Source: Bifidobacterium breve
GTDB taxonomy: Bacteria; Actinomycetota; Thermoleophilia; Solirubrobacterales; Solirubrobacteraceae
Length of the DNA: 64,000 nucleotides
Direction of reading: 5' to 3'
NCBI GenBank assembly: GCA_945881845.1
Contig: CAMCVN010000005.1
Location: 1-64,000, forward strand
Within the stretch, counting starts at the first letter, position 1. Every line of letters begins with the position of its first letter. The notes under the pieces were generated by a model. That model did no database searches. It was not told the origin of the DNA and worked only from the letters and a program-made list of their open reading frames with translations. The position numbers and the translations under genes are program-made. This document shows, piece after piece, positions 39,082-43,649 of this stretch.

Positions 39082-40731
39082 TCAGGCGAGGTTCGACTTG
39101 CGTGGATAGATCACGTCAGGGTCCTGCAGCACATTGACGAGCGCTGGCAGGCCGGAGGCGAAGGCTCGCTCCAGCGCGGGGCGCAGGTCGGCCGGCTTCT
39201 CAACTAGTTCGCCGTAGCCGCCGAGCGTCGTGACGATCTCGTCGTAGCGCGTGCCGGGGCGCAGCTCGGCAGCGACCGAGTAGCCGTAGAGGAACTCCAT
39301 TGGATGCTTCTCGAGCGCCCAGATGCCGTTGTTGCCCATCACGGCGACGACGTTGACGCCATGACGGGCGAGCGTGTCGAACTCCATCCCGCCGAAGCCA
39401 AAGGCGCCGTCGCCGACGATCAGCACAACCTGACGATCGGGGAAGGCGAGCTTCGCGGCCAGCGCGTAGCCGGTTCCCGAGCCGAGGCAGCCGAACGGGC
39501 CGGGGTCGAGCCAGCAGCCCGGCTCATAGGAGTTGATCATCTTGCCGGCGAACGAGACGAAGTCGCCGCCATCGCCGATCACGATCGCGTCACGGCCGAG
39601 GAACTGGTTCAGCTCGTGGTAGATCCGCATCGGGTGCAGCGGTGCGCGATCGTCTTCAAGCTCCGGTAGCTCGGCGGCGCGCTTCTCGTCTTCGATCTCA
39701 CGCAGCTTTGTGGCCCAAGCGCCGGTCGCATCTTCGAGCCCAGCGGTTCCCTCGCGCAGCGCAGCCAGCGTCGCGGCAATGCCGCCGTAACACTCGGCGG
39801 CAACCTCGCGCGGGTTCGGGCGCAGCGGCTCGGCGCGGTCAACGACGATCAGCTTCGTCGCTTCGCCAAATGAGCCGCCAAATCCGAGCCGGAAGTCCAT
39901 CGGCACGCCGATCACGAGCGCAACATCGGCCTCCTGCAGCGCCTGGCCGCGAGCGCGAGCGAAGAAGAGCTCGTGGTCGGCCGGCACGCAGCCGCGCGCC
40001 AAACCGTTGAGGAAGACCGGGATCCGTCGCTCGTTGACGAGTTCCAACAGTGCCTTCTCGCCGTGCCCCCACCAGAGGTTGGTGCCGGCCATGATTACTG
40101 GGCGCTCGGCCGCGGCAAGCAGCGCTATTGCTTCCTCTATTCCGCTCGCTGCGGCCGGCTCTGCCTCGGGGTCGGGCAGCGGCGCAGCCGGGGGCGACTC
40201 CTCGCCCTCGGAGAAGACGATGTCGAGCGGGAAGTCGATGAAGGTCGGGCCAGAGTGCGGCGCCAGCGCCGTCGTCAGCGCTTCGTCGATCAGTCCGGGG
40301 ATCGCATCAGGGCTCTCGGCCGTGGCGGCGAACTTCGTCAGCGGAGCGACAAACGGAATGTGGTCGATCTCTTGGAGCGAACCCATTCCCCAGCGCAGTG
40401 CGGGCGCACGGCCGCCGAGAACCATGATCGGCGACTGGTTCTGCAGCGCTGAGCCGATCGCGCTAAGGCCGTTGGTAACGCCTGGGCCCGCTGTCAATGC
40501 GGCGACCCCCGGCTGGCGCGTGACTTTGGCCCAACCTTCAGCAGCGAATGTGGCGGCCTGCTCGTGGCGCGTGTCGACAATCTCGATCCCCTCCTCGCGA
40601 CAGCCGTCGTAGATCGAGAAGAGGTGGCCACCGGAGAGCGTGAACAGTTTCGAAACCCCGTACTGCTTCAGCCGCCGCGCTACAAGGCGGCCGCCGTGGA
40701 ACATTTTCGTCGAGCCAGTTTCGGTTTCCAT
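39082..40731 (-). CDS. TPP-dependent acetolactate synthase-like enzyme
   Basis: 549 aa three-domain ThDP enzyme. The catalytic glutamate is in [35 protein letters not shown] is the pyrimidine-domain loop; the cofactor motif is [31 protein letters not shown]. The family includes acetolactate synthase, 2-hydroxyacyl-CoA lyase and oxalyl-CoA decarboxylase; the small regulatory subunit is absent next door, so a role in branched-chain synthesis is doubtful. It resembles mycobacterial IlvG/IlvX-type proteins. Convergent with ppx. Confidence 0.88.
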
Positions 40732-40804
40732 CGCGCAACCCTACCGGCGATCGGGAGCGCTGCGGCGCCCGCACCGGCGGCTTACGTGGGGTCGGCTCGC
40801 TACC

Positions 40805-40950
40805 CTCTGCAGAGTTGAAGACCAGCCGAGTCGTGGCCGCCCAGTGTGGCCTCGAGCGGGGGAACCAGGTTGTTGGGGCTAAGCGCTCGCAGTTCGGAGC
40901 GCCGCGCAGACTCTTAATAGCGCGCGCCCGTCAGCTCACCTCGTAGGCAC
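40805..40950 (+). ncRNA. Cyclic di-AMP riboswitch (ydaO/yuaA leader)
   Basis: Two conserved blocks of the ydaO motif are visible in the right order: GAGCGGGGGAACCAGGTT with GGGGC downstream (40853-40879) and CCGTCAGCTCACCTCGTAGG (40928-40947). Between them is a hairpin-forming variable segment. The motif ends about 25 bp before the GTG of an M23 peptidase gene, as expected for actinobacterial c-di-AMP riboswitches that control cell-wall hydrolases. The outer boundaries are approximate. Confidence 0.85.
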
Positions 40951-40972
40951 AAACAAGAGTGGTCAGCGGTTC

Positions 40973-42109
40973 GTGTCCGTACTTAGACGATCAACTTCCC
41001 CCCTGCTTCGCAGAGGCCTTCCGGCCTTCTTAGCGCTGCTCGCCTTCAGTGCCCCTGTTGCGCTCGCGGCGAGCGGGCCCGGCGGCGCCGAGGTTCCGGG
41101 CCAACCTCTGGTCACTTCGATCGCCTGCCCGCTACAGCCCGTCAGCAGCTGCGCCGCCGGGCAACTGATGACTGTTCGTGGCAGCAACCTGCAAAGCGCG
41201 CAACAGGTCACCTTCGTCGGCTCCAGCAGCAGCCGCGACAACGTCGTAGTCAAGCTCTCGGCTCGCGCCGCTCAGCCGACCGCGATCACTGTCACGGTGC
41301 CAAGCCGCGCGAAGAGCGGCGCGGTACGCGTCAGCGGCACGATCGCCGCCGCGGTGAGCTCACCGCAGCCGGTCAAGATTGTCGCTGGCCTTCCTGCGGC
41401 CGATGATGCCAGCGGCTCGACGAAGCTGATCGCCGGCGGCAAGCGCGAGGCGCACTTCGGCTACCACGTGAACAGCAGCGCGGCAGTTGGTTCACGGGTC
41501 GAAGCGGTCAGTGGCACGACCGGCAAGGTCGTGCGTAGTTGGCCATTGGTTAAGTCTGGCGAAGGCAGCGTCAACTGGGACGGATTTGTGGGCAAGGAGC
41601 CAGCTACGAGCGGCACGTACGTGCTGCGACTCAATGATTCAGCAAGCGCGAGCGCGGAGACGACGACTGGCAGCGACACGCAGTTCGAGCTGGCTGAAGG
41701 CTTCTTCCCAGTTCGCGGCGCGCACACCTTGGCAGCGAGCGAAATGCAGCGCTTCGGTGGCTCACGTAACCACCAAGGGACCGACCACTTTGCCAAGTGC
41801 GGCACGCCTCTGGCAGCTTTTACCAGCGGCGTAGTCCAGTTCAACGCCTTCCAAGGCGCGGCCGGCAACTACGTCGTCGTTCAGCGCGCCAACGGTGAGT
41901 CGTACGCCTACATGCACATGCGCGAGCGTTCACCGGTCAAGGTCGGCGCGAAGGTTTTCGCCGGCCAGCGACTCGGCCGCGTCAGCGACAGCGGCCACGC
42001 CAGCGGCTGCCACCTGCACATCGAACTGTGGACCGCGCCGGGCTGGTACAAGGGCGGCCACGCCTACGATTCGCTGCCTTTGATGAAGCGCCTCGACAAG
42101 CTCAACTGA
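40973..42109 (+). CDS. Secreted M23 peptidase with IPT/TIG-like domain, c-di-AMP-controlled
   Basis: 378 aa from a GTG. Signal peptide about 1-33; IPT/TIG-like Ig fold about 45-138 (VTSIACPLQPVSSC..GQLMTVRGSNL..QQVTFVG); a second beta domain about 150-240 with FlgD-like GSVNWDGFVGKEPATSGTYVLRL; LytM/M23 domain about 255-378. Zinc and catalytic residues are H267 and D271 (NHQGTDHF), H315 (YMHM) and H347/H349 (GCHLHIEL). It should cleave peptidoglycan cross-bridges outside the membrane. A c-di-AMP riboswitch immediately upstream would tie its expression to osmotic or wall stress. Confidence 0.92.
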   Translation: MSVLRRSTSPLLRRGLPAFLALLAFSAPVALAASGPGGAEVPGQPLVTSIACPLQPVSSCAAGQLMTVRGSNLQSAQQVTFVGSSSSRDNVVVKLSARAAQPTAITVTVPSRAKSGAVRVSGTIAAAVSSPQPVKIVAGLPAADDASGSTKLIAGGKREAHFGYHVNSSAAVGSRVEAVSGTTGKVVRSWPLVKSGEGSVNWDGFVGKEPATSGTYVLRLNDSASASAETTTGSDTQFELAEGFFPVRGAHTLAASEMQRFGGSRNHQGTDHFAKCGTPLAAFTSGVVQFNAFQGAAGNYVVVQRANGESYAYMHMRERSPVKVGAKVFAGQRLGRVSDSGHASGCHLHIELWTAPGWYKGGHAYDSLPLMKRLDKLN

Positions 42110-42128: not shown

Positions 42129-42214
42129 TGCCCGGGGAGGGGCTCGAACCCCCACGTCCCTTGCGGGACAGCCGGTTTTAAGCCAGCCGCGTCTACCGGT
42201 TCCGCCACCCGGGC
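42129..42214 (-). tRNA. tRNA-Leu (TAA)
   Basis: 86 nt on the minus strand, starting GCCCGGGTGGCGGAACCGG. The anticodon loop CTTAAAA gives anticodon TAA. A long variable arm (TGTCCCGCAAGGGACG) and the class II D-loop identify a leucine tRNA. T loop TTCGAGC, discriminator A, no encoded CCA. It is 19 bp downstream of the M23 stop on the opposite strand. Confidence 0.95.
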
Positions 42215-42302: not shown

Positions 42303-43649
42303 ATGTCTGAAGAATCTATGGAAGCTTCCGCAATCACACAATCCGACCTTGTAGGTCTGCGCGCCCCGAGCGCCTTCTTGCGGCTTCAGTCGGATGAGAA
42401 GCTCGTCACGCTGACGCGCCGCGGCAACCAATCGGCGTACGAGGCTCTGGTCGGTCGCTACCACGCGCGGATCCTCGGTTTCACGCGCCACATGCTGGCC
42501 TCGAAGGAGGACGCCGAGGACGTAACGCAAGAGAGCTTCGCCGCCGCTTACAGCGCGATGATGGCCGACGAGCGCGCGATCAACGTCAAGCCTTGGCTCT
42601 ACCGCATCGCCCGCAACCGCTCGCTCAACCACCTGCGCCGCCAAACTGCGATCGGCGTCGACGACTTCGACCACCACGTTGCCAACCAGGGCCGGACGAC
42701 CGAGGATGAAGTCAGCCAGCGCGAAGATCTGCGTCAACTGATGACAGACGTGCGTGAGCTTCCCGAGTCGCAGCGCACGGCGCTGCTGCTGCGTGAGATC
42801 GACGCCCTCTCCTACGACCAGATCGCCGAGGCGATGGAGACGACCGTGCCGAGCGTCAAGTCGCTGCTGGTTCGCGCCCGCGGTGGCCTTGCCGAAGCGG
42901 CCGAGGCGCGCCAGATCTCCTGCGAAGAGGTTCGGATCGAACTTGCTGAAGTTGCCGAAGGGCTAACCAAGCTCTCTCCCCCGGTTCGTCGCCACACGCG
43001 CGAATGCGAACGCTGCAAGGGCTTCCAGGCAACGTTGAAGCAGAACAACAAGGCGCTCGCGATGTTGCTGCCGATCGGGCCGCTGCTGGTACTGAAGAAG
43101 GTCGTCCTCGCTCATATCGGCACAACTGCCAGCGCTGGTGGAACCGCTTCGGCGACCGCTGGCGGCGGGCTGCTCTCCGGCGCCGTTGGCTCAGTAGCGA
43201 CAAAGGCTGCAGCAACGATGGCGGCAGCCGCGATCGTCACGACCGGCGCAGTTGAGGTCAACAAAGCAACGACTGCCGCGCCGACGCGCGAGTCGGCCGC
43301 GGCGATCACGCAGACCGCTCCGGCCCCCGTTGCCGCCCTCGCCACGGTGACGAAGCCCCAGCTCCCGGCCAAAGCAGCGAAGCTCGTCGCTGCTGCCCCG
43401 GTCGTAGCGGACGTCGTCGTGCCAGCAGTCGTCGATCCGGCGTCGCTGCCGGTCACCGTTGACCCAACGCCCGTCACGCCACCGGTTGTTCCTGAAGAGC
43501 ACCACGACGATGTGACGCTTGCGCCGCCGGTTGCCGATACGCCCGTTGCGCCGCCGGTTGTCGATACGCCTGTTGCGCCGCCGGTTGTCGACACCCCTGT
43601 CTCGCCGACGGTCGTAGAGACCCCAGTCGCCCCGACGGCGACTCCTTAA
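42303..43649 (+). CDS. ECF sigma factor fused to zinc-binding anti-sigma-like and membrane regions
   Basis: 448 aa. Sigma region 2 spans about 42-112 (YHARILGFTRHMLASKEDAEDVTQESF, KPWLYRIARNRSLNHLRR) and sigma region 4 about 145-195 (LPESQRTALLLREIDALSYDQIAEAM..SVKSLLVRAR). Next comes a ZAS motif H231-x3-C235-x2-C238 preceded by C207, hydrophobic segments near 252-272 and 295-325, and a Pro/Val-rich tail with 9-residue repeats. Sigma and anti-sigma parts in one chain are known from a few actinobacterial ECF groups. An in-frame GTG at 42240 would add 21 lysine-rich residues; I prefer the ATG because the upstream DNA probably holds the tRNA-Leu promoter. Confidence 0.85.
   Translation: MSEESMEASAITQSDLVGLRAPSAFLRLQSDEKLVTLTRRGNQSAYEALVGRYHARILGFTRHMLASKEDAEDVTQESFAAAYSAMMADERAINVKPWLYRIARNRSLNHLRRQTAIGVDDFDHHVANQGRTTEDEVSQREDLRQLMTDVRELPESQRTALLLREIDALSYDQIAEAMETTVPSVKSLLVRARGGLAEAAEARQISCEEVRIELAEVAEGLTKLSPPVRRHTRECERCKGFQATLKQNNKALAMLLPIGPLLVLKKVVLAHIGTTASAGGTASATAGGGLLSGAVGSVATKAAATMAAAAIVTTGAVEVNKATTAAPTRESAAAITQTAPAPVAALATVTKPQLPAKAAKLVAAAPVVADVVVPAVVDPASLPVTVDPTPVTPPVVPEEHHDDVTLAPPVADTPVAPPVVDTPVAPPVVDTPVSPTVVETPVAPTATP
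43530..43637 (+). repeat. Four 27-bp tandem units in the sigma factor tail
   Basis: Four adjacent 27-bp units encoding VADTPVAPP-like 9-residue repeats (VADTPVAPP, VVDTPVAPP, VVDTPVSPT, VVETPVAPT). The first two are nearly identical in DNA, the last two diverged. Such a Pro-rich rod would follow the membrane segment and probably span the cell wall. Confidence 0.8.

What the first reader, a model, noticed from the sequence alone, without database searches (positions are those of the whole stretch)
40805..42109. c-di-AMP riboswitch directly controls an M23 peptidase with an IPT/TIG-like domain
The conserved ydaO blocks (GAGCGGGGGAACC.. and CCGTCAGCTCACCTCGTAGG) lie upstream of a GTG-started secreted M23 gene with only about 25 bp between. 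This RNA class is known to control wall hydrolases in actinobacteria, and the order here is consistent. The block has GCTCAC where the common form is GCTAAC, and the short spacing suggests control of translation instead of a terminator.
Basis: partly seen in the sequence, partly recalled or inferred. Interest (0 to 1): 0.6.

Follow-up and report, generated by a model that had tools for sequence, protein, structure and literature searches.

The report
c-di-AMP riboswitch before wall-cutting enzyme
An environmental actinobacterium controls a secreted cell-wall-cutting enzyme with an RNA switch that senses the signal c-di-AMP; this is a known kind of control, one of seven such switches in this genome, and the sequence evidence suggests the RNA shuts the gene by folding over the place where the ribosome must land.

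Summary
Confirmed. A full-length c-di-AMP (ydaO, RF00379) aptamer lies at 40814-40964 (67.1 bits, cut-off 38, E 2e-13); its conserved 3' block ends 25 nt before the GTG (40973) of a secreted M23 endopeptidase. It is one of seven such aptamers in a 2.07-Mb Solirubrobacterales genome; all seven precede wall hydrolases (2 M23, 2 RlpA-type DPBB, 3 NlpC/P60-like). All 61 genomes searched in the order carry the class (1-12 copies). Streptomyces already shows the same logic (6-7 hydrolases), so the kind is known.

The added result concerns mechanism. The pseudoknot known in this aptamer class is present (ACUCUU 40910-40915 with AAGAGU 40955-40960). Across 129 distinct loci it covaries strongly (mean 6.16 bp against 5.01 for mismatched partners; 44 different helices), and its 3' strand ends a median of 8 nt before the start codon. 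Terminator-like sites are essentially absent. This favours a translational OFF switch whose aptamer is its own expression platform. That is inferred, not shown; Streptomyces rpfA has been reported as transcriptional. In passing: an RlpA gene under the same control appears to start with AUC in most of its genus.

The parts
40801..40806 (+). -10-like element TACCCT (TANNNT), putting the likely transcript start at about 40812-40814, the first base of the aptamer
   Evidence: CGCTA invariant in 10 M23 orthologues; TANNNT starts 18-32 nt before P1 in 75 of 103 riboswitch loci, 77 occurrences against about 12 expected. Inferred; the sigma-70 consensus scan found nothing.
40814..40964 (+). c-di-AMP (ydaO/yuaA) riboswitch aptamer, RF00379
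   Evidence: cmscan 67.1 bits, E 2.3e-13, full model
40825..40827 (+). P1, 5' strand (GCC)
   Evidence: Rfam structure line
40946..40948 (+). P1, 3' strand (GGC)
   Evidence: Rfam structure line
40854..40866 (+). conserved core block GAGCGGGGGAACC
   Evidence: sequence; near-invariant columns of alignment A1
40928..40947 (+). conserved core block CCGTCAGCTCACCTCGTAGG
   Evidence: sequence; near-invariant columns of alignment A1
40910..40915 (+). pseudoknot, loop strand ACUCUU
   Evidence: Watson-Crick complement of 40955-40960; covariation over 129 loci
40955..40960 (+). pseudoknot, tail strand AAGAGU, next to and partly overlapping the weak ribosome-binding site, ending 12 nt before GTG
40820..40823 (+). 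GACC, possible outer helix P0 with 40961-40964 (special to this M23 family, fixed, no covariation)
   Evidence: inconclusive
40961..40964 (+). GGUC, 3' partner of possible P0
   Evidence: inconclusive
40973..42109 (+). secreted M23 metallo-endopeptidase: signal peptide, TIG-like and FlgD-Ig-like beta domains, M23 domain with HxxxD (H267, D271) and HxH (H347, H349)
42129..42214 (-). tRNA (long variable arm, Leu-like), convergent, so the M23 unit is probably monocistronic
   Evidence: same order in orthologues

Best explanation
This is a c-di-AMP riboswitch that turns the M23 wall endopeptidase OFF when c-di-AMP is high. Transcription starts at or next to the first base of the aptamer. When DisA-made c-di-AMP binds, P1 and the aptamer's own pseudoknot (ACUCUU with AAGAGU) lock. 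The tail that holds the ribosome-binding region, 12 nt before the GTG, is then held in structure and the 30S subunit cannot load. Without ligand the tail is free and the hydrolase is made. No separate terminator or anti-terminator is used. Six more copies put other wall hydrolases under the same signal. Shown here: aptamer, gene, DisA, regulon, covarying pseudoknot, its position, lack of terminators. Inferred: ligand binding, OFF direction, block of translation.
For: Aptamer. M23 orthologues keep it: 10 of the 11 Solirubrobacterales relatives, the eleventh cut off at the contig end. DisA; a 329-aa DHHA1 protein is a candidate c-di-AMP phosphodiesterase. Seven copies, all before wall hydrolases. 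Pseudoknot: in 129 distinct loci the best loop-tail helix averages 6.16 bp against 5.01 (sd 0.09, maximum 5.27 in 1000) when tails are dealt to other loci; with one entry per distinct loop sequence 6.10 against 4.84; 87% have 5 bp or more; 44 different helices, such as CUCUUUC/GAAAGAG, CUCCUU/AAGGAG, CUCGUU/AACGAG, GUUCGUU/AACGAAC. In 79 loci with a clear signal peptide and canonical start the pseudoknot ends a median of 8 nt before the start codon (-1 to 18). No terminator in 40600-41200; loose terminator-like sites in 3 of 129 loci, while same-class relatives L198 and L199 have obvious ones, e.g. CCGCTGCGTTGCCAGCGGTTTTTTTT. A C. glutamicum c-di-AMP riboswitch before nlpC is an OFF switch acting on translation, and its authors suggested an RBS pseudoknot (PMC9960051).
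Against: The pseudoknot is a known part of the aptamer in other bacteria too (PMC5393176), so its presence alone does not make it the expression platform. The window's own Shine-Dalgarno sequence is weak, and over all loci the best SD overlaps the pseudoknot strand by 2 nt or more in only 65 of 112 cases. S. coelicolor rpfA has been reported to end transcription early on c-di-AMP (PMC10117811), without a canonical terminator (PMC9960051). Three seemingly real aptamers (L005, L007, L029) have no clear pseudoknot of 5 bp. The M23 family departs from consensus at GGGGCUAAG and GCUCAC; whether the binding pockets tolerate this was not tested. Sequences are related, so the permutation z values are inflated.
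Confidence: 0.7

Rival explanations
1. The riboswitch works at transcription: c-di-AMP causes early termination by a non-canonical or Rho-dependent route, as proposed for Streptomyces rpfA.
For: rpfA transcripts rise five-fold in a disA mutant of S. venezuelae and termination was reported for the S. coelicolor leader (PMC10117811); same-class relatives L198/L199 have intrinsic terminators behind the aptamer.
Against: No intrinsic terminator in the window leader and 3 of 129 loose hits in the order; only 25 nt lie between aptamer block and start codon, leaving no room for a separate platform.
Confidence: 0.2
2. It is a c-di-AMP ON switch or a constitutive leader that has lost ligand response.
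For: The M23 family has fixed departures from consensus (GGGGCUAAG, GCUCAC).
Against: Score is far above threshold, the aptamer is kept in orthologues down to 39% protein identity, and known members of the class are OFF switches (PMC9960051).
Confidence: 0.08
3. The match is chance or a decayed remnant.
For: Minimum free energy of the leader is not lower than that of shuffles (z -0.14), although that test cannot see pseudoknots or ligand.
Against: E 2.3e-13, conservation in every testable orthologue, seven copies all before wall hydrolases.
Confidence: 0.01

Closest known systems
c-di-AMP riboswitch (ydaO/yuaA leader, RF00379)
   Same: Full covariance match, core blocks, P1, loop-tail pseudoknot (known from the solved structure, PMC5393176)
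   Different: No downstream terminator; the start codon sits right behind the pseudoknot; GGGGCUAAG and GCUCAC variants in this M23 family
C. glutamicum nlpC riboswitch (PMC9960051)
   Same: c-di-AMP class, wall peptidase, no canonical terminator, translation proposed, DisA organism; authors suggested CUCC of the riboswitch pairing with the GGAG of the RBS
   Different: M23 instead of NlpC/P60; here the pairing strand is the aptamer's own pseudoknot and is supported by covariation
Streptomyces ydaO-controlled hydrolases incl. rpfA (PMC10117811)
   Same: Six to seven wall hydrolases per genome under the same riboswitch; pseudoknot next to the start codon also seen in four long-genome loci, L195-L197 and L201, which I take to be Streptomyces-like
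   Different: Different hydrolase set; rpfA reported as transcriptional; genome about four times larger for a similar number
M23 endopeptidases (ShyA 6ue4, LytM, lysostaphin)
   Same: M23 catalytic domain, HxxxD and HxH motifs
   Different: Preceded by TIG-like and FlgD-Ig-like domains; the sequence match to those enzymes covers the M23 domain only

Membership tests
c-di-AMP riboswitch RF00379 | Covariance score above the curated cut-off over the whole model | tested here: met
   67.1 bits vs 38, positions 1-134
c-di-AMP riboswitch RF00379 | Pseudoknot between hairpin loop and tail after P1 | tested here: met
   ACUCUU/AAGAGU in the window; covariation in 129 loci
c-di-AMP riboswitch RF00379 | c-di-AMP synthase in the genome | tested here: met
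   DisA, DAC 95.8 bits, linker 161 bits
c-di-AMP riboswitch RF00379 | Binds c-di-AMP and changes expression | not testable with these tools
   needs in-line probing and reporters
translational (terminator-free) c-di-AMP switch | No intrinsic terminator; start region within reach of ligand-stabilised structure | tested here: met
   pseudoknot ends 12 nt before GTG
translational (terminator-free) c-di-AMP switch | Shine-Dalgarno itself inside the pseudoknot | tested here: inconclusive
   overlap of 2 nt or more in 65 of 112 loci; window SD weak
Peptidase M23 | M23 domain above cut-off with HxxxD and HxH | tested here: met
   71.6 bits vs 28.7; H267, D271, H347, H349 invariant
IPT/TIG domain | Profile match above cut-off | tested here: not met
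   17.5 bits vs 20.9; best Foldseek match of the model is the glycan-binding protein SGBP-B 6e57, which I recall as built of Ig-like domains, with low TM-scores. Call it TIG-like only

The most novel reading that the evidence does not exclude
In this actinobacterial branch the c-di-AMP aptamer is its own expression platform: the conserved loop-tail pseudoknot is the device that closes the ribosome landing site, with no added hairpin. Some of the controlled hydrolases add a second brake, a near-cognate AUC start codon, so that a wall-cutting enzyme is made only when c-di-AMP is low and initiation is permissive.
Probability: 0.35. Interest if true: 0.6.

Novelty: new member of a known kind. Interest (0 to 1): 0.38.

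Why it matters
Whether actinobacterial c-di-AMP riboswitches act on transcription or translation is unsettled: rpfA of Streptomyces is reported as transcriptional and nlpC of C. glutamicum as translational. The 129 loci give a compact, compensable six-base helix that can be swapped to decide it. They also show a whole order that has put many of its secreted wall hydrolases under c-di-AMP, in genomes as small as 2 Mb.

Tried and rejected
Free-energy folding of the leader was uninformative (z -0.14). A MAFFT alignment of 85 aptamers did not register the tail, so the pseudoknot was tested without alignment by permuting tails among loci. An outer helix GACC/GGUC looked attractive but is confined to this M23 family and never varies, so it is left inconclusive. 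The AlphaFold model was poor for the M23 domain (pLDDT under 50, shallow alignment) and was used only for the two beta domains. Enrichment of weak start codons (ATG 28, GTG 26, TTG 25 of 79; crude control ATG 47, GTG 29, TTG 13) is suggestive but not independent of relatedness. Nelson 2013, two structure papers and St-Onge and Elliot 2017 were not held, so what they say is taken from papers that cite them.

Full report
What is there. Infernal places a complete RF00379 aptamer at 40814-40964 on the + strand (67.1 bits, gathering score 38, E 2.3e-13). The upstream neighbour is a divergent thiamine-diphosphate enzyme whose start is at 40731, and the downstream neighbour is a convergent tRNA at 42129-42214, so the M23 unit probably stands alone.

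The protein. Peptidase_M23 matches residues 266-354 (E 6e-20), and a profile search finds ShyA, LytM and lysostaphin among solved relatives. HxxxD and HxH are invariant in ten orthologues. The first half is beta-rich; TIG and FlgD_ig profiles match below their cut-offs, and a model shows strands at pLDDT mostly 65-93 for residues 41-138 and 158-240. I call it TIG-like, not TIG.

The organism and signal. Named relatives of the M23 gene are mostly Solirubrobacteraceae/Solirubrobacterales MAGs. The genome (2.07 Mb, 92.8% complete) has one DisA, after a RadA-like ORF and before a CarD-like ORF (the two neighbours were named by eye), and a 329-aa DHHA1 protein that may be a phosphodiesterase.

The regulon. 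Seven RF00379 matches above cut-off precede, in order of score, DPBB/RlpA with a peptidoglycan-binding domain, DPBB/RlpA, NlpC/P60-like with peptidoglycan-binding domains, this M23, a second M23 with a PcsB-like coiled coil, NlpC/P60-like, and NlpC/P60-like with peptidoglycan-binding domains (the NlpC matches are below Pfam's cut-off). They take two of five M23 proteins and both DPBB proteins of the genome. All 61 genomes of the order searched have matches, 1 to 12 each, against 46 of 246 drawn from the phylum. Of 92 riboswitch-controlled proteins scanned, 25 match M23, 20 NlpC/P60, 16 DPBB, 4 transglycosylase and 36 PG_binding_1 (one protein can match several). Streptomyces has six or seven hydrolases under this class (PMC10117811), so the logic is known.

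The pseudoknot. The solved ydaO aptamer has a loop-tail pseudoknot (PMC5393176). Here ACUCUU (40910-40915) is the exact complement of AAGAGU (40955-40960). In 129 distinct loci the longest Watson-Crick loop-tail helix averages 6.16 bp; when tails are dealt to other loci it averages 5.01 (maximum 5.27 of 1000), and with one entry per loop sequence 6.10 against 4.84. There are 44 different helices, many changed on both sides. The loci are related by descent, so the z values (13 and 11) are upper bounds, but the number of distinct compensated helices is hard to explain otherwise.

Where the pseudoknot sits. In 79 loci with a hydrophobic signal peptide and a canonical start, the helix ends -1 to 18 nt before the start codon, median 8. 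Its 3' strand overlaps the best Shine-Dalgarno match by 2 nt or more in 65 of 112 loci. So in these loci it lies inside the ribosome footprint, though not always on the SD itself. A TANNNT -10-like element lies 18-32 nt before P1 in 75 of 103 loci, which puts transcript starts at the aptamer. Terminator-like sites follow in 3 of 129 loci, while two genomes of the same class have plain terminators. Four loci from genomes of 8-10 Mb, taken here for Streptomyces, and two from a genome of another family (L203, L204) show the same pseudoknot-start closeness, so the arrangement is not private to this order.

How it most likely works. High c-di-AMP closes P1 and the pseudoknot and blocks 30S loading; low c-di-AMP frees the leader and the endopeptidase is made. 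Class identity and DisA are shown; the OFF direction follows from the class; the block of translation is inferred from anatomy and from the C. glutamicum nlpC case (PMC9960051). Transcriptional control, as reported for rpfA, is the main rival.

A side result. The RlpA gene behind the second aptamer (L002) has no ATG, GTG or TTG in frame before its signal peptide; an ATC stands 21 nt after P1, where other loci have their start. The same holds, with ATC 15 to 21 nt after P1, in eleven further loci of the genus (L145-L151, L153, L154, L157, L158), while L152 has ATG. One orthologue without the aptamer has ATG (L156), and another shows only ATT/ATC (L155). In NlpC-like L003 and L056 ATC stands where L049 and L055 have TTG. 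AUC starts are very rare in bacteria as far as I know; this needs protein evidence.

Verdict. The finding is real and correctly named. It is a new member of a known kind. Its value lies in the comparative case for the aptamer's own pseudoknot as the expression platform, and in the possible AUC starts.

Noticed in passing
L002 (G000:C26) 1680; orthologues L144-L158: RlpA-type lytic transglycosylase gene under a c-di-AMP riboswitch seems to start with ATC, conserved in most of the genus; one orthologue has ATG.
   Followed up: partly
L003 and L056 versus L049 and L055: NlpC/P60-like gene has ATC at the place where relatives have TTG.
   Followed up: partly
window 40973 and related riboswitch loci: Riboswitch-controlled hydrolases seem rich in weak start codons (TTG 25 of 79) compared with a crude genome control (13 of 89).
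   Followed up: partly
L198, L199 (same class), L189, L190, L193, L194: c-di-AMP aptamers in other actinobacterial lineages are followed by intrinsic terminators or long alternative hairpins, so the phylum seems to hold both designs.
   Followed up: partly
window 42303-43649: ECF sigma factor with a long C-terminal extension: a cysteine-pair stretch (ECERCKGF), a possible membrane segment and a Pro/Val repeat tail, looking like sigma and anti-sigma in one protein.
   Followed up: no
L022, L024: Public MAG contigs titled Bifidobacterium breve carry relatives of this M23 gene at 79% and 65% identity, with the same riboswitch and tRNA; the record names look wrong.
   Followed up: no
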